A stretch of 47,641 nucleotides of DNA from Gemmatimonadota bacterium. Its GTDB lineage: Bacteria; Gemmatimonadota; Gemmatimonadetes; Longimicrobiales; Gaopeijiaceae. The stretch lies in the NCBI GenBank assembly GCA_029863525.1, contig JAOTVL010000008.1:1-47641 (forward strand), written 5' to 3'. Shown here in pieces: positions 16,043 to 27,295 of the stretch; the first letter of the stretch is position 1, and the number at the start of each line of letters is the position of its first letter. The notes below the pieces were generated by a model. It was not told where the DNA came from, did no database searches, and saw only the letters and a list, made by a program, of their open reading frames with translations. Both the position numbers and the translations under genes were made by a program.

Positions 16043-17206
16043 TCAGCGGGCAACGCGCCCCAATCGGCCGACCGCCTCGGTGAGGCGATCCGGGTCGACC
16101 GTGAGCGCGATGCGGAAGAAGCCTTCGCCACCCGCCCCCAACGCCCCCCCGGGGAGCACGATGACGCCCTCTTGGTCCAGCGCACGGGCCGCGAACACCT
16201 CCGACGGCTCTCCGCCTGGAACGGGAACCCAGAGATACATCGTCGATTTCGGCACGGTAACGTCGAAGCCGGCCTGCGAGAGCGCCGCGGAGGCGGCGTC
16301 CCGGCGTCGCTCGAAGATGGCGATGTTGCCCGGAACCCAGGCGGCCCAGCTCTCCAACGCCGCGACCCCGGCCGCTTGGATCCCCATGTACTGCCCGGTG
16401 TCCATGAAGGTCTTCACCTTCGTCAGGGCACCGATCATGTCGGCGTTGCCCACCGCCCAGCCCAAGCGCCATCCCGTCATGTTGTACGTCTTGGAGAGCG
16501 AGTGGAACTCGAGCGCTACGTCGCGGGCACCCTCGAACTCCAGGATGCTCCGGGGTCGGTACCCGTCGAAGCCGAACTCCGAGTAGGCGTTGTCGTGCGC
16601 CAGGATGATGTCGTGCTCGGAGCAGAAGCCGATCGCCTCTCGGAGGTAGTCGTCGGGGGCCACCGCCGCGGTCGGGTTGTTCGGATAGTTGAGGTATAGG
16701 ATGCGCGACCGATCCACGACGGTTGCCGGCACGCCGTCGAGCGGGATGAGGAAATCGTGCTCGGGTCGCAGGGCCACCAAATGGGGCTCGCCGCCCGCCA
16801 GGGTGACCGACCCGAGGTAGGCTTGATAGCCCGGATCGGGAATGATGGCCGCGTCTCCGGGCTCGATGTAGGCGAACGGCAGATGGGCCAGACCGTCCTT
16901 CGATCCGATGAGCGGGAGAACCTCCTTCCATGGGTCGACCGAAACCCCGAAGCGGACGTCCATGAAATGAGCGATCGCCTCCCTGAAGTCCGCTAGTCCA
17001 CTCTGGAACGCGTAGCGGGAATAGCGATTGACCCCTGCCACTTCACGTAGTTTCTCGACCACGGTGGGAGGCGGATCGAGCGGCGCGTCTCCGGCACCGA
17101 GGTCGATGACGTCGACCCCGGCCGCCTCGATCTCGCGGCGCTTCGCCGCCATCCCCGAGAGCGGAAACGGAGGCAGGGCACGATACCGCGCGTTGGGCGT
17201 CGGCAT
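16043..17206 (-). CDS. Class I/II aminotransferase, DapL-like
   Basis: The 387-residue PLP enzyme has the class I/II fold signatures: YLNYPNNPTAA (171-181), AHDNAYSEFGFDGY (203-216), and the PLP lysine Lys239 in HSLSKTYNMTGWRLG. The motif around EFHSLSKTYNMTGWR resembles LL-diaminopimelate aminotransferase (DapL) and alanine-type aminotransferases (AlaC). If DapL-like, it would make LL-DAP directly from tetrahydrodipicolinate, upstream of LysA, which is also encoded in this window. The ATG at 17206 shares one base with the stop of the FAH-family gene (TGATG). The substrate needs biochemical or phylogenetic evidence. Confidence 0.85.
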   Translation of the reverse strand: MPTPNARYRALPPFPLSGMAAKRREIEAAGVDVIDLGAGDAPLDPPPTVVEKLREVAGVNRYSRYAFQSGLADFREAIAHFMDVRFGVSVDPWKEVLPLIGSKDGLAHLPFAYIEPGDAAIIPDPGYQAYLGSVTLAGGEPHLVALRPEHDFLIPLDGVPATVVDRSRILYLNYPNNPTAAVAPDDYLREAIGFCSEHDIILAHDNAYSEFGFDGYRPRSILEFEGARDVALEFHSLSKTYNMTGWRLGWAVGNADMIGALTKVKTFMDTGQYMGIQAAGVAALESWAAWVPGNIAIFERRRDAASAALSQAGFDVTVPKSTMYLWVPVPGGEPSEVFAARALDQEGVIVLPGGALGAGGEGFFRIALTVDPDRLTEAVGRLGRVAR

Positions 17207-17829
17207 CAGGCCTCGGCGACCACGGGGTTCGAGACGGTCCCCACCCCGTGGACCTCCACCTCGACGACGTCGCCGGCGGCCAGCGTCCCGATCCCGTCCG
17301 GTGTGCCGGTCGCCACGAGGTCGCCCGGCTCGAGCGTCATGATCGCGCTGATGTATTCGATGATGGCAGGAACGTCGAAGGCCATGTCCGACACCGGAGC
17401 ATGCTGACGCACCTCGCCGTTCACACGGGTCGTCACCCCGAGTGCGTCCAAATCGACGTCCGCGACCGGCACCGGGGTTCCGACCGGGCAGAACGTGTCG
17501 AACCCCTTCGCGCGGGACCACTGGCTGTCGGAGCGCTGAAGGTCGCGCGCGGTCACGTCGTTGACGGGAACGATGGCGGCGATGTGCGCCCAGGCCTCGG
17601 CGGCTGGCACGGCCTTGGCACGAGTCCCGATGATGAGCCCGATCTCCCCCTCGTAGTCCACCTCGGACGATGCACCCGGCATGACGATCGGCTGACCGTC
17701 CGCGATCAGCGACGAGGGCGCCTTGAGAAAGATGAGCGGCTCTTTCGGTACATCGCCGCCCATCTCGGCCGCGTGCTTCGCGTAGTTCTTTCCGACGCAG
17801 ACAATCTTACTCGGTTTGATGAGGGGCAT
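17206..17829 (-). CDS. Fumarylacetoacetate hydrolase family protein
   Basis: The 207-residue product is a single FAH domain. K-I-V-C-V-G-K-N-Y-A-K-H-A starts it; VDYEGEIGLIIG holds the metal-binding Glu pair; VPVNDVTARDLQ gives a metal Asp; then KGFDTFCPVG and LEPGDLVATGTPDGIG. This subfamily includes acylpyruvases, oxaloacetate decarboxylase/tautomerases and related dione hydrolases, so the substrate is open. ATG 17829 follows GAAGGA at about 8 nt. The downstream aminotransferase start overlaps its stop by one base, indicating one transcript. Confidence 0.92.
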   Translation of the reverse strand: MPLIKPSKIVCVGKNYAKHAAEMGGDVPKEPLIFLKAPSSLIADGQPIVMPGASSEVDYEGEIGLIIGTRAKAVPAAEAWAHIAAIVPVNDVTARDLQRSDSQWSRAKGFDTFCPVGTPVPVADVDLDALGVTTRVNGEVRQHAPVSDMAFDVPAIIEYISAIMTLEPGDLVATGTPDGIGTLAAGDVVEVEVHGVGTVSNPVVAEA

Positions 17830-18235: not shown

Positions 18236-20863
18236 TCAGCGGTAAAAGTCGGCGAGTTTGCGCTCTACGTCGCTCCACGCGCCCTTCACCAAAGGTGCCG
18301 GTGGAAGGGAGTCTCGCAGGTAACGGCCGTACCGCTTGGTCAGGATCCTCTTGTCGAGAAGCACGACCGCGCCGCGGTCGGTCCTGGACCGGATGAGGCG
18401 GCCGAACCCCTGCTTGAGGCGAAGCGCTGCCTGCGGCAGCATGAAGTGGTTGAACGGATCCAGGCCGTGCTGTTCGAGCGCCTCCATTCGGGCCTGGGTG
18501 ATGGGCTCGGTGGGGACACGGAACGGGAGCTTTTGAATGAGAAGGCCCCGGAGCGGGTCACCCGGAACGTCGACACCCTCCCAAAACGACGTGGTGCCGA
18601 GGAGGATCCCTCGCCCGGACGCGACGAAGCGGTCGAGCATGCGGTGGCGATCGTCCTCGCCCTGCACGAAAAGCGGCCACTCCACGTCCAGCCCGAGCTC
18701 TCGCACGCCCCCCGCCACGGCACGTAGCGCGGAGTGGGAGGTGAAGAGCGCGAAGAGCCCACCGTCGGTCATCTCGGCGAAGCGGCCCAGTACGTCGACC
18801 GTCGACTCGTTGTACGCACCGGCTCCCGAGTCGGGGAGGTCCGTGGGCACGACGAGCATCGTCTGCGACGCGAAGTCGAAGGGTGAGGGCACGACCCGTT
18901 CGTCGACCTGGACCTCCTCCTCTTCGAGCTCCATCTCGAGCGAGGTGATGCCCATTCGGCTTCTGAGGAAGTCGAACCGCTTCCGGGTCGTGAGCGTCGC
19001 GGACGTGAGCACCGTCGTCTTCGCGCGGGTGAAGAGCGAATCACGCAGCAACGACCCAAGCTCGATCGGTGCGGCCGCCAGCACGAGATTGGCTCGTTTG
19101 CCGCGGCCCCTCGACTCCATCCAACGCACGAACGCGGCCGCCTCCTCGCCGGGCGCCAAGACGAGCCGGAGCCCGTGCTCGGCGGCGGCGAGGCGACGCT
19201 CGATCGAGCGCAGATCGAGCAGCCGCCCCTCGAGACGCTCCGCAAGCGTTTCGAAAAGCTCCAATCGGGCCCTCAGCTCCGCGAGCTCGCGCCCCAACGT
19301 GCCGAGTGCGGCGAGCGTGGCTCGGAGCCTCTCGGCCACGTCTTCATTTTCGGCCGGCTCTCCCGATCCGGCGGGGCCGAGTCGCACCGCACCTTCTCCG
19401 GCCGGCACGAACGGCTCGAGCCGCTCGAGGAGGCCCTCGACCTCGGCCCGCGCCTTCGACAATGCGGCGCGGACGCGATTCTCCACCCGCTCCCTCAGCT
19501 CGGGCCCGTTCTCGTCGCCGGCCACGGCCTCGTGGATGGCCGTCAAGATGCCGCGCCCCCGACGATCCAGTCGCGACATGGCCCGGTACAGCCCACGGCG
19601 GGTGATCTCCACGCCCAGGTGCGATGTCGCCGCGTCTTCGACGTTGTGTGCTTCGTCCAGGATTACTCGGTCGTAGGCGGGGAGTACCGCCGACTGCGTG
19701 TAGTTGTTGGTGGCGCGCCGCACGGCGAGATCGGTGAAGAGGAGATGGTGATTGACCACCAGGAGCTCCGCTCCCGCTGCGCGACGGCGGGCGCGCTGGT
19801 AGAAGCAGTGCTGGAAGTGGGGGCAACGCGCACGAAGACAGATATCCGGGTCGCTCCGGACCTCCTCCCAAGTCTCGGCCGCCGGCGTGAACCCGAGGTC
19901 GGAGAGAGAGCCGTCCTCGGTCGTCCCGATCCACTCGTGAAGCTCTCGCAGTTCCCCGGAGCGATCTTCCTCGAACAGGCTTCCCTGACTCTCCTGGGCG
20001 AGCAGTGCGCGTCGGATCGAAACGTAGTTTCCTCGACCCTTCACCAGCGCCCACTTCACGTCTCCCATGAGGCGCTGCACCAGCGGCAGGTCCTTGGTGC
20101 TCAACTGCTCCTGGAGATTGATCGTGTTGGTGGACACCACAGTGCGCTCCCCGTTCTGCTGCGCCCACCGCACCGCCGGTAGCAAATACGCGAGCGACTT
20201 CCCCGTACCGGTCCCCGCCTCGACGATCGAGATGCCCCCGTCGTTGAAGCGCGTGGCGACCGCCGACAGCATCTCCCTCTGGCCGGGTCGGTCCTCATAG
20301 CCTTCGTAGCGCCCCGAGAGCCCGCCACCGGGGGCCAGGATCTCTTCCAACTCGTCGAGGTCGAGCGGCAGCCGTTCGCGCGGAGTAGGCGGCTCCACGA
20401 CCACGTACATCCTCTCGGCGTCGTTGTCGATGATCGCCGTGCCGATGCCCTGCTCGTACAGGTGGGCCGCCACCCGCATGTCCGCGTCGGACGGCTCCAG
20501 CCCGCCACTCGGGTGATTGTGCAACATCACGCCGCCCTCGGCGGCGTCGCGCGCCGCTACGAGCACGGCTTCGAAGTTGCCCCTGGCGACCGCCCTCGGA
20601 TCCCGCACCACGCGGTCTTCATCGACCACGGCCAAAAAACAGACTTCGCGCCCTCCCGCCCGCTCCACCTCGGCGCGCAGCCGGGCCCGCGCCTCGTACG
20701 AGATCGTCAGTGGTTTGGCAGGCGCCCTCTCGCGCGCCCTCGCACCGCGCGGCGACACGCCGGAACCCGACTCTTCGTCCGGTACTCCATGCACGCCGTC
20801 CAACCCCGCGAGCGCTTCCTTGGGCAGCGTGATCGGGAAGCCCTCGGGCATCTCCACGCTCAA
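18236..20863 (-). CDS. dinG: DinG/XPD-type helicase with N-terminal RadC-like JAMM domain
   Basis: The 875-residue product is a superfamily 2 DNA helicase. Residues about 51-165 form a RadC-like JAMM domain: HNHPSGGLEPSDAD (115-128) has the full HxHx7Sx2D metal set. The helicase has Walker A GTGTGKS (217-223), LDEAHNVED (402-410) and QGFGRLIRS near the C-terminus. Cys342, Cys347 and Cys353 have the spacing of three of the four DinG Fe-S ligands, but the usual first cysteine in the GRGNY segment is Ser282. A coiled-coil region of about 100 residues (about 455-560) lies between the helicase halves. The start TTG 20863 gives a TTGA overlap with the upstream gene; ATG 20851 is an alternative. DinG enzymes unwind R-loops and other 5'-tailed structures; a JAMM fusion is unusual. 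Confidence 0.85.
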   Translation of the reverse strand: MSVEMPEGFPITLPKEALAGLDGVHGVPDEESGSGVSPRGARARERAPAKPLTISYEARARLRAEVERAGGREVCFLAVVDEDRVVRDPRAVARGNFEAVLVAARDAAEGGVMLHNHPSGGLEPSDADMRVAAHLYEQGIGTAIIDNDAERMYVVVEPPTPRERLPLDLDELEEILAPGGGLSGRYEGYEDRPGQREMLSAVATRFNDGGISIVEAGTGTGKSLAYLLPAVRWAQQNGERTVVSTNTINLQEQLSTKDLPLVQRLMGDVKWALVKGRGNYVSIRRALLAQESQGSLFEEDRSGELRELHEWIGTTEDGSLSDLGFTPAAETWEEVRSDPDICLRARCPHFQHCFYQRARRRAAGAELLVVNHHLLFTDLAVRRATNNYTQSAVLPAYDRVILDEAHNVEDAATSHLGVEITRRGLYRAMSRLDRRGRGILTAIHEAVAGDENGPELRERVENRVRAALSKARAEVEGLLERLEPFVPAGEGAVRLGPAGSGEPAENEDVAERLRATLAALGTLGRELAELRARLELFETLAERLEGRLLDLRSIERRLAAAEHGLRLVLAPGEEAAAFVRWMESRGRGKRANLVLAAAPIELGSLLRDSLFTRAKTTVLTSATLTTRKRFDFLRSRMGITSLEMELEEEEVQVDERVVPSPFDFASQTMLVVPTDLPDSGAGAYNESTVDVLGRFAEMTDGGLFALFTSHSALRAVAGGVRELGLDVEWPLFVQGEDDRHRMLDRFVASGRGILLGTTSFWEGVDVPGDPLRGLLIQKLPFRVPTEPITQARMEALEQHGLDPFNHFMLPQAALRLKQGFGRLIRSRTDRGAVVLLDKRILTKRYGRYLRDSLPPAPLVKGAWSDVERKLADFYR

Positions 20864-22158
20864 GTCTTGAGCTTCTGCTTCTTCGCGGCCGGAAAGAGGA
20901 CGTTGTTGAGGATCAGTCGGTAACCGGGGGAGTTGGGATGCAGCGCGAGGTCGGTCTGGGGGTCACCGATCTGGTGCTCCGCGTCCTCGGGGTCGTGACC
21001 ACCGAAGTACGTCCAAGTGCCTTCGCCCAGATTTCCGTGGATGTACTTCGCCCAGTCGCCTTCCTGCGCGAGCACGATCGTACCGGCCTTCAGACGGTCC
21101 TCACGAAACGCCGTCGTGAGGCCGTAGAAGTCGGGGAGCACCGACTCGTGGTTCTGCGTGAGCATTGCCGGAACCGGATCGAACTTGGCCGAGAACTCGA
21201 AGAGGCTGTACACCCCCAGCTCCTTGCGCCACGGCGTGTTGACTTGGTGGGCGTCGATGTCGGAGAACGAACTCACCGACGGCGCCACCTGCACTTGGGC
21301 GTCGGTGAACGCCATAGCCAAGTCCCACTTCATCTTGGCCGAGGCACTCGGATCGGGGGGCGTCCCGTCGGAATAGGCGGCCGCGATATCGACGCCTTCG
21401 GCGGCGAGCGCGAGCTCCAGCGTCTCCGTGGCCGAGCACATGGCGAAGAGAAAGCCACCATTGTCCACGTAGTCACGGATGGTTCGGGCCACGTGCTTCT
21501 TCAGCGCCGGCACATCGGCGAAGCCGCCGGCTCGCGCAACCTCCTGGTTGCGCGCAACCTCTTCCTGGAGCCAAGGAGCCCCGGAGTAGGTCAGGAAGAA
21601 CTTGGAGTACTGGCCCGTGAAGTCTTCATGGTGCAGATGGATCCACTCGTATTCGGACAGATCCGACTCGATCACCTGGTCGTCCCAGATCGTCTCGTAG
21701 TCGATCCCGGCGTAGTCGAGCGCCATCGTCACCGCGTCGTCCCAGGGCGTCGAGTTCGGCGGTGTGTAGATCGCGACCTTCGGCGCGCGCTCGAGGGGAA
21801 CCGTCTCCATGTTCGACGCCTGGACCGTCGCACGCATGCGTGCCTCCGCGGACGCATCCATCGCTTCGACCGTCACGCCACGAAAAGCGGCTTCTCGTCG
21901 AACGTCCTGACGATCGGGCAAGAGGAAGGAGCCGCCCCGGTAGTTCAGAAGCCATTCCGCCTTTTCTTCCTGCTCGAGCGCCCAATACGTCAGACCGTAG
22001 GCCTTCAGGTGGTTCTGTTGCGCCCGATCCATGGGGACCAACAGGAATTGTGCCTGCGCAGGGCCAGCGGCGACCAGGCCGAGGCCGACGGCGCAGGAGA
22101 GGGCACATAGACGCGCGAGGAGATCCCTGCGGCGTCCGGCGTATCGGTTCCGCGTCAT
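20860..22158 (-). CDS. Secreted GATase-like protein of unknown function
   Basis: The 432-residue product has a clear signal peptide cut after AQA (36). Relatives are sometimes labelled asparagine synthetase B, but no N-terminal Cys nucleophile or PP-loop of AsnB is present. The middle contains IYTPPNSTPWDDAVTMAL, WIHLHHEDFTGQY, and a Rossmann-like RTIRDYVDNGGFLFAMCSATET, whose strand-turn resembles class I glutamine amidotransferase/ThuA-type folds. Later come HESVLPDFYGLTT and WTYFGGHDPED. The start ATG at 22158 overlaps the TPR gene stop as ATGA, and its stop overlaps the dinG start. It also shares the Y-x-x-x-GGFL turn with the DUF4159 protein in the same operon. Role unknown. Confidence 0.7.
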   Translation of the reverse strand: MTRNRYAGRRRDLLARLCALSCAVGLGLVAAGPAQAQFLLVPMDRAQQNHLKAYGLTYWALEQEEKAEWLLNYRGGSFLLPDRQDVRREAAFRGVTVEAMDASAEARMRATVQASNMETVPLERAPKVAIYTPPNSTPWDDAVTMALDYAGIDYETIWDDQVIESDLSEYEWIHLHHEDFTGQYSKFFLTYSGAPWLQEEVARNQEVARAGGFADVPALKKHVARTIRDYVDNGGFLFAMCSATETLELALAAEGVDIAAAYSDGTPPDPSASAKMKWDLAMAFTDAQVQVAPSVSSFSDIDAHQVNTPWRKELGVYSLFEFSAKFDPVPAMLTQNHESVLPDFYGLTTAFREDRLKAGTIVLAQEGDWAKYIHGNLGEGTWTYFGGHDPEDAEHQIGDPQTDLALHPNSPGYRLILNNVLFPAAKKQKLKT

Positions 22159-23945
22159 CGTCTGACTCCGCGTAGTCGCTGAAGCTCGAGGCGCGCGTCC
22201 GGCACGATCGCCGCGTTCGGACGCTGGGCGATCAGATTCTCTAGCAGCCGGACCGCTTCGTCCACCCCGTCCGGAGTTCGCGCATGGTATCGAGCGAGCG
22301 CCAGCGCCGCCTCCGCGGTCTCCGGCGCGTCGGGGTACTCCTCGACCAGGAGCGTGCGAATATCCGCCGCTGCCACGCGGGCGTCGCCGCGCGCCGCGAT
22401 GCGCGCGGCCTCCGCGAGGATCCCCGCCCGTTCCCCGGAATCGAAGGCGTCGACCTGCGCGGCCAACTCCGAGGCGGCGCGACCCGCCTCTCCTCGATGT
22501 GCGGTCACGCCGGCGATCGCGAGAGCCTGTGCCGCGGCCGGCGAGACTCGCCCGAGTAGGCCCGTGTATTGGATGACCGGCGTCGCGTCGGCCGGGGGCA
22601 GACCCGTGAGCGCAAGCAAGAGCGCCGTCCGCCCGTTCTCGAGGTCCCCTTCGGCCAGCAGGAGGTAGCCTCGCTCCATCGAGCTGAGGGGGCCGCTGAC
22701 CCCCTCGAGCACCGCCCCGGCGCCTGCGAGGTCGCCCCGTGCGTGCAGCGCGGACGCCACCGTCGCGGCCAGGCCGTCCAGCTCGGGCGCGTTCTCGAAC
22801 GTGTCGCGGAAATCGGCGAGTAGATCGCGCAGTCGCGTCGGATCGGCGCCGGACCCCTCCAGCTGGATGGCGCGCGCCGTGGCGCGGCGTCGGTCAACGG
22901 AGCGGGCCGAGAACGACTCCACGAGTCTCCACTGAGCGTCGAGCGCGGTCAGGGTATCCCCCGCCGCGAGTGCGACATCGACGATCCGCTGATCGAATTG
23001 ACGCCGCTCGGCGGGAGAGGTGGCATCGTCTCCGAGTTCGTCGTACGCCCACGAGGCGAGCGCCACCATGCCACCGTCGCGCGCCCGGCGGGCGGCGTCG
23101 GCCAGGAAGGACGCCCGCGCCCTGCCCTCCAGGTCCGCGGCCACCGAGCGCACACCTCGGTCGGCCCGTTCCGTGAGTCCCACATCCAGCGCGATGCGCG
23201 CTCCCGCCCTACGTCGGGGGGGGAGGTTCGAGTCGCTCAGCGCGTCGACCACCAACGGCCCGAGGACGTCACGCCCGGCCTCGAGCTCGACAATACGACG
23301 GGCTATGGTCACGGCTTGACCCCCGTCGTCACCGACGGCGGTGGTCCACTCGCTCGCGGCCGCATCATAGTCGCCCTCCGCGGCCAGGAGGTCCCCGATC
23401 TCGAGCGCGAAGACTTCGTCTTCGCCGATCCGGGTCCGGCCTCGCCGATACACCGACATCGCCTCGTCGGCGTCGAAGGCACGCTCATAAACCCGCGCCA
23501 CCTCCCGGTAGGCGACCTCCGCCTGCGGGTCGAGCGCGAGCCACGCCTCGGCCTGCGCACGCACCGCATCGAGGGAGTCGACGTCGGTCAGAACGCGCAG
23601 GGCCAATGAGCGAACCCCCGGTGACTCCGGATCCTGCTCGAGATACGCGTAGACCGCGGGGAGGATCTCCACGACTTGGCCTTGGGCTCCGAGCACTCGC
23701 TCGAGCGCGAAGAGACCGCCCGAAGAATTCGGGACTTCGACCAGGAGCCGGCGAAGCGCTTCCTCCGCACCTGCATAATCTCCACGAGACTCTCGCGCCG
23801 CCGCCTCGCGAAGAAGGCGCGCCTCCTCTCCTCTCAGGCCCTGCCCCTCGACGGGCGCCGGCCCAAGCCCGGTCAGCAGCGCGCACGCGAGGATGACAGC
23901 CACCGCACCGCGCACGCCGTGTGCCTCTACGAACGAGCGCTTCAT
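22155..23945 (-). CDS. Exported TPR-repeat protein
   Basis: The 596-residue product has a signal peptide (hydrophobic segment about 12-28, cut near VEGQ). The mature part is alpha-helical and alanine/leucine/arginine-rich, with TPR-like units throughout (for example A-R-E-S-R-G-D-Y-A-G-A-E-E-A-L-R-R-L at about 50-67 and L-A-A-E-G-D-Y-D-A-A). A final TPR-like unit (ALALARYHARTPDGVDEAVRLLE) is near the C-terminus. Such proteins scaffold envelope complexes. ATG 23945 overlaps the DUF4175 stop as ATGA. No partner is known; the operon suggests the DUF4175 protein. Confidence 0.75.
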   Translation of the reverse strand: MKRSFVEAHGVRGAVAVILACALLTGLGPAPVEGQGLRGEEARLLREAAARESRGDYAGAEEALRRLLVEVPNSSGGLFALERVLGAQGQVVEILPAVYAYLEQDPESPGVRSLALRVLTDVDSLDAVRAQAEAWLALDPQAEVAYREVARVYERAFDADEAMSVYRRGRTRIGEDEVFALEIGDLLAAEGDYDAAASEWTTAVGDDGGQAVTIARRIVELEAGRDVLGPLVVDALSDSNLPPRRRAGARIALDVGLTERADRGVRSVAADLEGRARASFLADAARRARDGGMVALASWAYDELGDDATSPAERRQFDQRIVDVALAAGDTLTALDAQWRLVESFSARSVDRRRATARAIQLEGSGADPTRLRDLLADFRDTFENAPELDGLAATVASALHARGDLAGAGAVLEGVSGPLSSMERGYLLLAEGDLENGRTALLLALTGLPPADATPVIQYTGLLGRVSPAAAQALAIAGVTAHRGEAGRAASELAAQVDAFDSGERAGILAEAARIAARGDARVAAADIRTLLVEEYPDAPETAEAALALARYHARTPDGVDEAVRLLENLIAQRPNAAIVPDARLELQRLRGVRR

Positions 23946-26900
23946 GATCCTCCCGGGGGACGTCGGGCGCGGTTCAGCCGCTCGAAGTAATCGAGCACGA
24001 GCTGGCGCACCGCGGGGCTCAGCCTCTGAAGCTGCTCTCCGTCCGGCACTTCATAGGGCATGATTCCGAGCTGCTCTCCCGTGAGCGAGAGCACCTCGCC
24101 GCGCTCGAATACACCGGGCACCTCGGACTCACGCTCTTCGGAGAACTCCTCTCGTTCCAACGAGCGCCCCGCGTCGAGCAGACGGTGGAAGAGACGCTCC
24201 TGACGCTCGACCACCTCCGGCGTCAGCCGTCCCTGCTGGAGCTGCTCCGCCAGGGCCCTCGCTTCTTGCGCGAGCTGTTGCAGGTCCCCGAGCGACTGCT
24301 CAGACCCGGGCTCGTCGGCCAGGTCGCCGAGGTCGCTCGCCACGGACTCCTGGCCCTGCGACATCTGCTCGAGTTGCTGAGACATCGCCTGTTCGCCCAA
24401 CTGCATCGGCATGAGTTGGGTGCTTTGGTTCATGAGGTCGCCCTGCTGCTGCGCGAGCTGCTCCAACTGCTGGGCCATCTCTTCTCCGCTTTGACCCTCC
24501 CCCTGTTGGCCCATCTGCTGGGCCCCTGCAATCGCCATGAGCGCGAGCTGGTTGAGGTCGGCGATCGACTGCTCGGCCTGCGCCGTCGGGGACGGACTCG
24601 ATCCCCGCCTTCCCTCCATCGCTTCGATGGTGTTCTGCAGCGATTCCATCGCGAGGCCCATCTGCGCGGAAAGCTCACGATTCGCACCCATCGCGCCTTC
24701 CGTCGCCAGCTGGAGGTTCTCGGCGATGTTCTGGACGCCCTGGAGGAGCGAGGCTTCCTGGGCGCGCATCTCGGCCAGCCGTTCCTGGCCCGCTCCGCGC
24801 ATCTGCTCACGGAGCTCACCCTGCCGACGCGCGAGCGCCAGCGCATCGTCCGCGGTGCGCATGAGTGCCTCTTGCTGAGCCTCCATTTGCTCCTCGGCCA
24901 TCTCCTGCATGGCCTCCTGCATCTCCTGGGCAGCTTGCTGCATCTGGTCGGCCGCCTCTTGGGCCTGTTCGCCCGCCTCCTCACTCTGACCCTGACTCGC
25001 CTGCTGCTGCGCCTGCTCCATCTGTTGCTGAGCCTGCTGGGCGCTCTGCTGCGCCTCGCGCACGCCCTCGGACGCCTCGCGTTCACCCATCTCCGCGAGC
25101 CGCTCCTGGAGCGCTTCCATCCGCTGCTCCAATCGCTCGGCCTGGTCGGCGAGATCCTGCTGCTGCCGCGCGCGAAGCTCCGGGTCGTCGGCCTCTTTCA
25201 TGGCGTCGGCCAGGGCCTGTTCCTGGCGGGCCAGTTCCTCGGCCTCGCTCGTGGTCGCGCGGAAGTCCTGCTCCAACGCGGCCCGCTTGAACCGCTCCAG
25301 TGCCTCTTCGAGCCGCTCCCGGAAATCCTCTTGTTCGCTCGCCATGTTCTCGAGCGCTTCGTTGGCTTGTTGGAGATCCTCCCGGTCGAGGGCGTCGGAC
25401 AGCTCCTCCATGCGCTGCTGCAATTCGTCACCCGTCATGCTGCTGAGCATCTCCTGCAGCTCCTCGAGCTGACGGCGAAGCTCCGGGTCGGCCTGACCTG
25501 CCTCCTCCATCATCTGCTCCAAGGCGTCCATCTCCGCGCGGAGCGAGTCGACTTCGGCCGACATCTGCGCTTGCTCCTCGAGGGATCGGGCGAGTTCCTC
25601 GCGCGACTCGAAATCGGCTTGTCGTTCCTCGGCGGTCTGTTCGGCACCGCGCTGCGTCGCGGACTCGAGCGCCCGGTCTCGGTTCTCCTCGGACTGCTCC
25701 TGAGCCTCGGCGGCAAGCTCTTGGAGGCGCTCCGCGACGCTCTCGAACGCGTCCTCGGCCTCCCGCCTCAGCTCCGCCGCCTCCGGCATGCGGAGCAGGT
25801 ACTCCTCGGAAATCGAGACCTGCGCCGCCGGGCTATTGTCGATCGCCCGAGCGTAGTAGCGCACCGTGTCGCCGGGCAGGAGCCCCCAGGAGCGGAGGTC
25901 GAGGAGCGGACGCGCGAGGATCGCTCGTTGGCCTCCCACGTCGAAGCCCTGCGCTACCGGCTCCCGCCGCTCCCCGAAGGAGGTGATCCGGTAGGCCACC
26001 AACTCGACCCGTCGAAGGCCATAGTCGTCCCCGGATTCCAGGACGAGCGGCTGACGCATGTTCAGGGGCATGACGGTGTCACGCCCCGGTGTCGGAATGC
26101 GGATGATCGGAGGAGCGTCTGGAACGATCGTGACTTCGAGCGGCTCCGGCTGAATCTCCGCGGGTCCGCCCGCCACGTCACGGAAGTTCCACTCGACCGA
26201 GCGCGTGCGCCGCGGCGTCCAGCGGCCCGAGAACGTCTGGCCGTCCACGTCGAATGCCAGCACGTCAGAGCCGACCGAATCGACGAGCGAGACCGACGAA
26301 AGAGGACGACTCGCGCGACCCTCGAAGCGGAGCGATGAGCCCGCGGGCAGCCTCAGCGGCGGCGGGTCACCGCGGTACTCGTCCGGCGAAAGTCCGGTAT
26401 GCGCCGGATACAGCACCTCGAGCACCATGTCGCTCACGAACAGGGGATCGATCGGTACGATTCTATGCGTGGCGGTCTCGTTGCCCTCCACGTCCCGGAC
26501 TCGGTACTCGATGATGGCCGAGACCGTGCGGAAGACGTGGTCCGCCCGACCGCCCTCGACCTCGAGACGCTCCGTTCGCGCGATGTCGCCGGCGGCCTGA
26601 TAACCGAGGTCGACAAACGTCCGCGCGGCTGCCGAGACCTCGATGGTCACGTCCGTGCCCCTCTGCACTTCGACCGTCCCCGGAATGACGACCATCGCGG
26701 GGAGGACCGGATCGACCATCGTCGCGATGGGAGACGCCAAGCCACGCAGCCCGTTCACGGCGCGACTGGGGGAGGCGAAGGAGAGACCTGCGAACAGGAG
26801 TACAATGGCGCCGGCGACGATGAAGCCGCGCCCCCGCCAGAGAGCGATCATGGACCCCAGTCGCCCGGCGAGCTCCGGTACTCCGCGACCCTCCAGGTCG

Positions 26901-27295
26901 CGGAGCACCCCAGCGGCGGCCCTTTGGGCCAAGGCCCCCGAGACCCCCTCCGGCATCGAGCGGGTCAGCTCGAGGGACCCCCGCAGTACCCCGCTGCGCA
27001 CGCTCGCGGCGTCTTCCATGGCCGCTGCGACCGACGTCTCATCCAGCCGGCCGGCCACGACCCGGCGGGCGCCGAGGGCGGTCAGCAGCACAGCGACGAT
27101 CGCGATCGCGTCAATCGCCGCGGGTACGTCGGAGCCCTGTCTCCACCCCCCGGAACCGACGAGGAGCCACGCCACGGACGCGGCGAGGAACACGACGCTC
27201 ACCGCCCACAAGACGGTTGTGAATCCCAGCCGCCGCACCAGGTAGTCGCGGACCGTCGAGACGCGAAGCTCGAGTCCCCGGCTCGCTGGGCTCAT
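23942..27295 (-). CDS. DUF4175 membrane protein with giant Gln/Glu coiled coil
   Basis: The 1117-residue product has three transmembrane segments (about 25-47, 60-80, 157-174), then a beta-rich domain with a VVIPGTVEVQRGTDVTIEVSA-type start (about 205-470). A helical region of about 550 residues follows (about 500-1030), extremely rich in Gln, Glu, Ala and Met (runs such as QQAQQQMEQAQQQASQGQ), predicted as long coiled coil. The C-terminus (about 1060-1117) ends in a conserved-looking GEQLGIMPYEVPDGEQLQ segment. This layout fits DUF4175 proteins, which occur with DUF4159 and MoxR/DUF58 envelope genes. Start ATG 27295 overlaps the DUF4159 stop as ATGA. The function is unknown. Confidence 0.85.
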   Translation of the reverse strand: MSPASRGLELRVSTVRDYLVRRLGFTTVLWAVSVVFLAASVAWLLVGSGGWRQGSDVPAAIDAIAIVAVLLTALGARRVVAGRLDETSVAAAMEDAASVRSGVLRGSLELTRSMPEGVSGALAQRAAAGVLRDLEGRGVPELAGRLGSMIALWRGRGFIVAGAIVLLFAGLSFASPSRAVNGLRGLASPIATMVDPVLPAMVVIPGTVEVQRGTDVTIEVSAAARTFVDLGYQAAGDIARTERLEVEGGRADHVFRTVSAIIEYRVRDVEGNETATHRIVPIDPLFVSDMVLEVLYPAHTGLSPDEYRGDPPPLRLPAGSSLRFEGRASRPLSSVSLVDSVGSDVLAFDVDGQTFSGRWTPRRTRSVEWNFRDVAGGPAEIQPEPLEVTIVPDAPPIIRIPTPGRDTVMPLNMRQPLVLESGDDYGLRRVELVAYRITSFGERREPVAQGFDVGGQRAILARPLLDLRSWGLLPGDTVRYYARAIDNSPAAQVSISEEYLLRMPEAAELRREAEDAFESVAERLQELAAEAQEQSEENRDRALESATQRGAEQTAEERQADFESREELARSLEEQAQMSAEVDSLRAEMDALEQMMEEAGQADPELRRQLEELQEMLSSMTGDELQQRMEELSDALDREDLQQANEALENMASEQEDFRERLEEALERFKRAALEQDFRATTSEAEELARQEQALADAMKEADDPELRARQQQDLADQAERLEQRMEALQERLAEMGEREASEGVREAQQSAQQAQQQMEQAQQQASQGQSEEAGEQAQEAADQMQQAAQEMQEAMQEMAEEQMEAQQEALMRTADDALALARRQGELREQMRGAGQERLAEMRAQEASLLQGVQNIAENLQLATEGAMGANRELSAQMGLAMESLQNTIEAMEGRRGSSPSPTAQAEQSIADLNQLALMAIAGAQQMGQQGEGQSGEEMAQQLEQLAQQQGDLMNQSTQLMPMQLGEQAMSQQLEQMSQGQESVASDLGDLADEPGSEQSLGDLQQLAQEARALAEQLQQGRLTPEVVERQERLFHRLLDAGRSLEREEFSEERESEVPGVFERGEVLSLTGEQLGIMPYEVPDGEQLQRLSPAVRQLVLDYFERLNRARRPPGGS

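What the first reader, a model, noticed from the sequence alone, without database searches (positions are those of the whole stretch)
18236..20863. RadC-like JAMM domain fused to a DinG-type helicase
The N-terminal about 115 residues carry the full JAMM metal motif HxHx7Sx2D (HNHPSGGLEPSDAD), as in RadC, directly upstream of a DinG/XPD-like helicase with Walker A GTGTGKS, DEAH and motif VI. DinG proteins in some Firmicutes carry an N-terminal exonuclease instead. A peptidase-type zinc domain on a helicase could tie proteolysis or isopeptide cleavage to R-loop or repair processing.
Basis: partly seen in the sequence, partly recalled or inferred. Interest (0 to 1): 0.7.

Follow-up and report, generated by a model that had tools for sequence, protein, structure and literature searches.

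The report
RadC-type domain fused to DinG helicase
A bacterial DNA-unwinding enzyme carries a RadC-like zinc-type enzyme domain at its front end; this pairing is real, conserved and already in print as a protein class, but what the front domain cuts is still untested.

Summary
One open frame on the minus strand (18236-20863, 875 aa) encodes a RadC-type JAMM domain (residues about 46-160; ligands E73, H115, H117, S125, D128) joined to an XPD-family DinG helicase (187-875). Pfam RadC, a confident model and Foldseek hits to RadC and JAMM deubiquitinases agree. It is no misjoin: the match runs through the JAMM region in 113 of 150 sampled genomes of the phylum, and 63 of 80 loci kept from a wider scan have the fusion with all five ligands.

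The architecture is published: Iyer 2017 mentions it and Cheng 2025 names it 'RadC-like DinG', unstudied. So this is a new member of a known kind.

New here: the JAMM domain is usually more conserved than the helicase, but in three rows that lost ligands the whole domain drifts, which points to a working site. Two ubiquitin-type families are rare in the phylum (E2-like 3 of 150, UBact 0 of 150), against isopeptide cleavage as the general job. In the window's order the first iron-sulfur cysteine is Ser.

Substrate unknown: nucleic acid is my first choice; protein crosslinked to DNA is the boldest open reading.

The parts
18236..20863 (-). RadC-like (JAMM) DinG helicase gene, 875 aa, stop included; start codon not settled (TTG/GTG/ATG at codons 1, 3, 5)
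20729..20863 (-). Residues 1-45: poorly conserved, low-confidence N-terminal tail
   Evidence: pLDDT under 50 for 1-45; identity 6-60% of aligned residues 1-49 against 16 relatives
20384..20728 (-). Residues 46-160: RadC-type JAMM domain
   Evidence: Pfam PF04002; AF2 model of 46-166 with pLDDT 94.6 and Foldseek to RadC 2qlc and JAMM deubiquitinases
20480..20521 (-). Residues 115-128 HNHPSGGLEPSDAD: JAMM metal motif (with E73)
   Evidence: E73, H115, H117, S125, D128 invariant in 61 of 61 rows of A2, the window's own included
20306..20383 (-). Residues 161-186: variable linker
   Evidence: 38-65% identity in the 16 window-to-relative comparisons
18239..20305 (-). Residues 187-875: DinG/XPD-family helicase core (Walker A 20195-20215, DEAH 19646-19657, motif VI 18389-18412)
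   Evidence: Pfam DEAD, DEAD_2, Helicase_C_2; Foldseek best hit DinG 6fwr, E 8.9e-44
19805..20020 (-). Residues 282-353: iron-sulfur region with Ser282 where most relatives outside the order have the first Cys, then C342, C347, C353
20860..22158 (-). Upstream neighbour, 432 aa, no Pfam match, 4-base overlap with the listed start; found beside DinG in 33 of 39 loci of the class
17206..17829 (-). Downstream neighbour, fumarylacetoacetate hydrolase family; found beside DinG in 33 of 39 loci of the class

Best explanation
It is a member of the 'RadC-like DinG' subgroup: a chromosomal XPD-family helicase, expected to move 5' to 3' on single-stranded DNA as solved DinGs do (inferred), with a RadC-type metal hydrolase domain fixed to its front. 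The hydrolase sits in the place that the DnaQ-like exonuclease holds in ExoDinG. I think it is catalytically active (about 0.8) and acts on what the helicase exposes, most likely the nucleic acid itself, a strand, an end or a modified nucleotide (about 0.4), as Iyer and colleagues proposed for RadC from context. Shown here: the architecture, the predicted fold, the conserved metal site, and drift of the domain where the site is lost. Inferred: metal identity, activity, substrate, pathway.
For: Architecture. RadC clade rather than deubiquitinase by sequence: the profile finds RadC 2qlc at E 6.9e-9 and AfJAMM only at 0.14-0.16; Pfam RadC in 59 of 59 members, Prok-JAB in 16 of 59. Active-site constraint: E, H, H, S, D invariant in 61 of 61 rows, the 60 relatives being 32-71% identical to the window protein, and all five present in 63 of 63 fused loci of the wider scan. 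Among 32 rows with an intact site (window included), JAMM identity exceeds helicase identity in 415 of 496 pairs; in the three rows with lost ligands it does so in 0 of 96, with mean residuals of -12.8, -15.7 and -19.2 points against a range of -5.4 to +2.7 for intact rows. Positional equivalence with nucleases and a nucleic-acid-processing proposal are in print (PMC5512222, passage), and S. aureus ExoDinG is a shown exonuclease-helicase (PMC12345164, passages).
Against: By fold the domain resembles (iso)peptidases at least as well as RadC: TM over the query 0.44-0.64 among the listed non-RadC JAMM hits, many near 0.6, against 0.51-0.53 for RadC. Cheng's DALI search found metalloproteases and no nucleases (PMC11981726, passage), and one paper calls E. 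coli RadC (YicR) a putative JAMM deubiquitinase (PMC4725251, passage). The paper listings showed no title on RadC biochemistry (most of those papers were not opened). Cheng also says that E. coli radC mutants have normal sensitivity to DNA damage. The JAMM domain was lost or decayed several times while the helicase stayed, so it is dispensable in some lineages. The pairs are not independent, and the intact rows were classed by the same ligands.
Confidence: 0.4

Rival explanations
1. One-chain helicase-protease: the helicase runs into a protein crosslinked to or tightly bound on single-stranded DNA, unfolds it, and the JAMM domain cuts the polypeptide, as FANCJ and the separate metalloprotease SPRTN do together in eukaryotes.
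For: The domain has the predicted fold and the metal-site residues of JAMM peptidases. The helicase is of the XPD/FANCJ family: FANCJ (9ej9) is matched at E 9.6e-8. FANCJ translocates into the crosslinked protein and unfolds it so that SPRTN can cleave (PMC12279946, passages).
Against: No peptidase activity is reported for any RadC-clade domain in the passages I read; Iyer et al. state that RadC JABs probably lack the groove that holds the ubiquitin tail (PMC5512222, passage). Characterised JAMM enzymes are specific, not general, proteases (recalled). No context link to repair was found.
Confidence: 0.2
2. Removal of a ubiquitin-like modifier: the JAMM domain is an isopeptidase that deconjugates a ubiquitin-like protein at sites of repair (near the first reader's idea).
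For: Foldseek hits include Caldiarchaeum Rpn11, CSN5, Rpn11, PfJAMM1 and the bacterial entries BubCD and 8tyx. E. coli RadC has been called a putative JAMM deubiquitinase (PMC4725251, passage).
Against: Prok-E2_B is over its cut-off in 3 of 150 (a fourth match is below it) and UBact in 0 of 150 genomes of the phylum (two matches below it), while 113 of 150 have the JAMM region on DinG. Neither family rang in the 14 control genomes, so sensitivity was not checked. Sequence places the domain with RadC. Other modifier families (Pup, ThiS-type) were not searched.
Confidence: 0.07
3. Non-catalytic role: the JAMM domain is a metal-stabilised docking or regulatory module that recruits partners or gates DNA entry.
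For: Several lineages lack it or hold a decayed copy: L062, L068, L088 and Fusobacterium L173, in parallel with the published pExoDinG, a DinG with a pseudo-exonuclease domain (PMC11981726, section 2).
Against: Ser125 and the other site residues are invariant across phyla, and the domain drifts once the ligands are lost, which a pure scaffold would not predict.
Confidence: 0.18
4. Artefact: a frameshift, assembly join or chance motif makes two genes look like one.
For: The window's genome is a draft of 221 contigs, 83% complete.
Against: An uninterrupted frame here and the same fusion in independent genomes, with largely the same gene order across the class.
Confidence: 0.01

Closest known systems
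RadC-like DinG subgroup (Cheng 2025, PMC11981726; model protein from Desulfuromonas soudanensis)
   Same: N-terminal RadC-like domain with conserved E, H, H, D plus FeS, arch and two motor domains; described as similar to YoaA apart from the RadC-like domain; no functional study (passages).
   Different: The paper's main text does not hold 'gemmatimonad' (its supplement was not read, so a member may be listed there). The window protein has Ser at the first FeS cysteine position.
RadC family (PF04002; NF000642; PDB 2qlc)
   Same: HNHPSG metal motif, the RG before it, JAMM fold.
   Different: HPRE is in 10 of 12 and DH[VI] in 12 of 12 RadC rows compared, and in 0 of 42 fused rows; NF000642 scores 26.1 against a cut-off of 180. 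The same genome has a separate RadC (G000:C44).
ExoDinG (S. aureus DinG, PDB 8zef)
   Same: Same helicase type with an extra enzyme domain at the same N-terminal place.
   Different: The added domain is a DEDDh 3'-5' exonuclease there (PMC12345164, passages) and a JAMM domain here.
E. coli DinG and YoaA
   Same: Helicase core; 6fwr is the best structural match and the YoaA model the best NCBIfam match.
   Different: The window protein has a far longer front part (DinG 6fwr aligns from its residue 25 to window residue 189) and is below both equivalog cut-offs.
FANCJ plus SPRTN (eukaryotes)
   Same: An XPD-family helicase working with a metalloprotease on DNA-protein crosslinks (analogy only; PMC12279946, passages).
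   Different: Two separate proteins; SPRTN is not a JAMM enzyme (recalled); no such activity is known for the window protein.

Membership tests
[quoted passage not shown]
RadC-like DinG (Cheng 2025) | Conserved metal site (E, H, H, D) | tested here: met
   E73, H115, H117, D128, also S125
RadC-like DinG (Cheng 2025) | FeS domain with four or three Cys (that paper's definition of FeS against pFeS) | tested here: met
   Three Cys (342, 347, 353) and Ser282
RadC-like DinG (Cheng 2025) | HolC absent from the organism | not tested
   Stated in PMC11981726 (passage); HolC not searched here
JAMM/MPN+ (JAB) fold | E plus HxHx7Sx2D | tested here: met
JAMM/MPN+ (JAB) fold | JAMM fold | tested here: met
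   Predicted model; Foldseek E 5e-5 to 1e-3 with RadC, Rpn11 homologue, COP9 subunit, PfJAMM1
JAMM/MPN+ (JAB) fold | Bound metal and hydrolase activity | not testable with these tools
   needs protein
RadC proper | NCBIfam RadC cut-offs (NF000642, TIGR00608) | tested here: not met
   26.1 against 180 and 20.0 against 133.85 bits
RadC proper | HPRE (10 of 12) and DH[VI] (12 of 12) as in the RadC rows compared | tested here: not met
   0 of 42 fused rows have either
DinG / YoaA equivalogs | NCBIfam cut-offs | tested here: not met
   YoaA 547 against 680; DinG PRK11747 402.7 against 598
XPD-family FeS helicase | Four cysteine ligands of a [4Fe-4S] cluster | tested here: not met
   The protein's only Cys are 75, 342, 347, 353; Ser at 282
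XPD-family FeS helicase | Walker A, DEAH, motif VI and the XPD/DinG fold | tested here: met
Ubiquitin-like deconjugation system | Ubiquitin-like protein or E2 in the genome | tested here: inconclusive
   own genome: no Prok-E2_B and no UBact match; the genome is 83% complete, no positive control rang and other modifier families were not searched

The most novel reading that the evidence does not exclude
RadC-like DinG is a self-contained bacterial helicase-metalloprotease for proteins crosslinked to DNA: the XPD/FANCJ-type motor drags single-stranded DNA until it meets the adduct and unfolds it, and the tethered JAMM domain cuts the chain. That would be a one-polypeptide counterpart of FANCJ plus SPRTN, in a scattered bacterial family, and would give the RadC clade a first activity.
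Probability: 0.17. Interest if true: 0.8.

Novelty: new member of a known kind. Interest (0 to 1): 0.35.

Why it matters
RadC-type domains are very widespread (143 of 150 genomes of this phylum have a PF04002 match, fused copies included, and 8 of 14 control genomes), and the passages I read report no biochemical activity for them. A version tied to a well understood DNA motor narrows where its substrate must be and gives a clean test: one protein, one metal-ligand mutant, and natural decayed copies as controls. The conservation pattern found here says that the site is worth assaying.

Tried and rejected
Misjoined gene or chance motif: rejected. Mobile or defence element: the PADLOC matches lie on the helicase part only; no plasmid or phage record covers 80% of the window protein; with a Geobacter relative as query 25 plasmid records reach 80%, and of the 20 listed only Fusobacterium vincentii aligns through the JAMM motif. 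That record is 2.1 Mb, and its JAMM region has lost the ligands. Gene-neighbour clue to function: largely shared gene order within the class, and in 50 loci outside the phylum only three weak matches to those neighbours. Clustering of the outside neighbours gave the DinG frame itself and frames antisense to it; the largest cluster clear of the DinG frame has 7 loci, all spirochaetes (the 14 largest clusters were printed). Standalone RadC replacing the fused domain or the reverse: no simple rule. 143 of 150 genomes have a PF04002 match; in 8 of these (G090, G133, G144, G150, G160, G162, G164, G166) the best match is as weak as a fused domain's, so RadC proper seems absent; G026, G167 and G177 have no match at all, but neither have G063, G114, G137 and G181. 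Single origin of the fusion: not proved. In the helicase tree (57 rows, quick method) the JAMM+ label needs 8 changes (at least 4 by starred branches), and rows without the domain from Proteus, Pseudoalteromonas, Sulfuricystis, Euzebya and Paenibacillus fall inside with weak support and long branches; in the domain tree (96 columns) the 42 fused domains lie on one side of 12 RadC (100). The AU test was not run. Iyer 2006 (PMC1779556) holds neither RadC nor DinG in its main text.
Full report
WHAT IS THERE. The finding lies on the minus strand. The frame 18236-20863 is open for 875 aa from a TTG; the whole open frame is 908 aa. Pfam places RadC (PF04002, 28.8 bits, cut-off 22.1) at residues 62-138, and DEAD, DEAD_2 and Helicase_C_2 behind it. 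NCBIfam's best matches are YoaA and DinG models, all below their cut-offs. AlphaFold2 on an alignment of 61 sequences gives mean pLDDT 89.3 and pTM 0.88; residues 1-45 are below 50. Foldseek's best match to the full model is DinG 6fwr (E 8.9e-44), then two chains of 6fws and S. aureus DinG. The domain modelled alone (121 aa, pLDDT 94.6) matches RadC 2qlc first (E 5.1e-5) and then BubCD, Caldiarchaeum Rpn11, COP9, proteasome and PfJAMM1 structures. TM-scores over the query are 0.51-0.53 for RadC and 0.44-0.64 among the other listed entries, so fold alone does not choose between them. Sequence does: the domain's profile finds RadC at 6.9e-9 and AfJAMM only at 0.14-0.16, and RadC is matched by 59 of 59 members against 16 of 59 for Prok-JAB.

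HOW WIDE. In a sample of relatives 57 of 59 genomes, the window's own included, have a match. In a sample of the phylum 126 of 150 have one. From the rows, 113 of the 150 have a match that runs through the JAMM region (recounted); 13 do not (G020, G034, G039, G067, G073, G078, G080, G083, G103, G152, G155, G172, G176; in G039 the match begins near a contig end, in G103 a JAMM piece lies on another contig, and the match of G067 is a weak C-terminal one); 24 have no match, among them every listed genome of families f7 and f9. Of the 113 only some were read residue by residue. The phylum is Gemmatimonadota by the titles of the nearest named records. The scan used the pattern HNHPSGxL[ED] or a Walker A pattern, so loci found by the first are biased towards intact sites. 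Titles of the 63 name Gemmatimonadota, Geobacter and its kin, Spirochaetes including Treponema, Sumerlaeota, KSB1, Dadabacteria, Planctomycetota, Acidimicrobiia, Halanaerobiaceae and Bacillota; most are metagenome bins whose labels may be wrong, but named strains are among them (Geobacter argillaceus, Geotalea toluenoxydans, Citrifermentans bremense, Treponema parvum).

THE SITE IS UNDER SELECTION. E73, H115, H117, S125 and D128 are all intact in 63 of 63 of those loci and invariant in 61 of 61 rows of alignment A2, whose 60 relatives are 32-71% identical to the window protein. In the first 51 relatives 50 are intact; the exception, L035 (G177, the same gene as L088), has K, R, L and E at positions 73, 117, 125 and 128. 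In the second set 31 of 39 are intact; besides L088, L062 (G026) and L068 (G167) have lost ligands, and five loci (L063, L064, L069, L070, L071) show no JAMM domain in the frame. The two sets overlap. The genomes of those five have one PF04002 match each, at RadC strength. Among 32 rows with intact sites JAMM identity exceeds helicase identity in 415 of 496 pairs; for the three decayed rows it does so in 0 of 96 pairs, with mean residuals of -19.2 (L062), -12.8 (L068) and -15.7 (L088) points against -5.4 to +2.7 for intact rows. The pairs are not independent, so this is a pattern and not a test, but it is what one expects if the domain is kept for its active site. The Fusobacterium vincentii homologue has a decayed copy as well.

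RELATION TO RadC. The own genome has a separate RadC at G000:C44. On a tree of 96 columns the 42 fused domains lie on one side of 12 RadC domains from the phylum (support 100). None of the 42 has HPRE or DH[VI], which 10 and 12 of the 12 RadCs have. On the helicase tree the Gemmatimonadota rows form one clade (99) with JAMM loss or decay inside it. Single origin across bacteria is not shown: the JAMM+ label needs 8 changes on that quick tree and long branches meet.

SURROUNDINGS. In the class the gene often keeps the same neighbours on the same strand: of 39 loci fetched, 33 have the 432-aa upstream protein (no Pfam match), 33 the FAA hydrolase, 28 the aminotransferase, 29 the large upstream protein, 25 the TPR protein and 18 ValS (the far ones are undercounted because the stretches end). 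This looks like a vertically kept housekeeping cluster. In 50 loci outside the phylum only three weak matches to these neighbours were found, and among the largest clusters of other neighbours none clear of the DinG frame spans more than 7 loci.

IRON-SULFUR SITE. Ser282 stands where most relatives outside the window's order have the first cysteine. It is Ser in 50 of 51 relatives of the first alignment, the Cys row being L052 of family f5; in the second alignment 24 of 39 have Ser and 15 Cys, following the split between the window's order and the other families of the class; in the 80 loci it is Ser in 6 and Cys in 74. The other three cysteines are almost invariant: the second is Ser in L148 and L151 and Thr in L154 and L155, the third and fourth are Cys in all rows of the three alignments. 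The window protein has no spare cysteine near the site: its only cysteines are 75, 342, 347 and 353. Cheng 2025 already notes CCHC and CCCS variants (section 2 and conclusions read).

MECHANISM. Shown: the architecture, the predicted fold, the invariant site, and drift when the site is lost. Inferred: that the domain is a metal hydrolase (0.8), that it works on what the helicase exposes, and that this is nucleic acid (0.4). Iyer et al. argue for a nucleic-acid role from fusions and position (PMC5512222, passages; their 2011 paper was not held). Cheng found metalloproteases and no nucleases by DALI (section 3.8 passages). The bold alternative is proteolysis of DNA-protein crosslinks, by analogy with FANCJ and SPRTN (PMC12279946, passages). 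Ubiquitin-like deconjugation is unlikely as a general role: Prok-E2_B is over its cut-off in 3 of 150 genomes and UBact in 0 of 150, though no control genome rang for either family and other modifier families were not searched.

NOVELTY. The class is named in print ('RadC-like DinG', one paper in the library holds that term) and that paper says that no research has been done on it. A search for DinG, DNA-protein crosslink, metalloprotease and RadC (three of four terms, 112 papers, 10 listed) listed no title that joins them; apart from Cheng's, those papers were not opened, and terms match at word start, so other words such as the name Ding are counted too. The member described here, its spread through one class, the selection pattern and the Ser282 variant are additions to a known kind; whether Cheng's supplement lists a member of this phylum was not seen.

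Noticed in passing
window residue Ser282 of the protein (20018-20020, minus strand); L002-L051, L073-L092: The first FeS cysteine is replaced by Ser in every row read from the window's order while the other three cysteines stay; a possible Ser-ligated or three-iron cluster.
   Followed up: partly
L062, L068, L088, L173: Decayed JAMM domains (lost metal ligands) on otherwise conserved DinG helicases, including a Fusobacterium vincentii record: natural pseudo-JAMM forms.
   Followed up: partly
L148, L151, L154, L155: Second FeS cysteine replaced by Ser or Thr in four fusions from other phyla.
   Followed up: no
window 20860-22158 (-): 432-aa protein with no Pfam match, overlapping the listed DinG start by 4 bases and found beside it in 33 of 39 loci of the class.
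   Followed up: partly
window 23942-27295 (-): 1117-aa Glu/Gln-rich protein with no Pfam match, next to a DUF4159 protein, part of the same conserved cluster.
   Followed up: no
families f7 and f9: Every listed genome of these families lacks a match to the DinG helicase, although most have a RadC match.
   Followed up: no
G026, G167, G177: Small genomes (1.8-2.0 Mb, 89-93% complete) that have both a decayed JAMM on DinG and no RadC match at all.
   Followed up: partly
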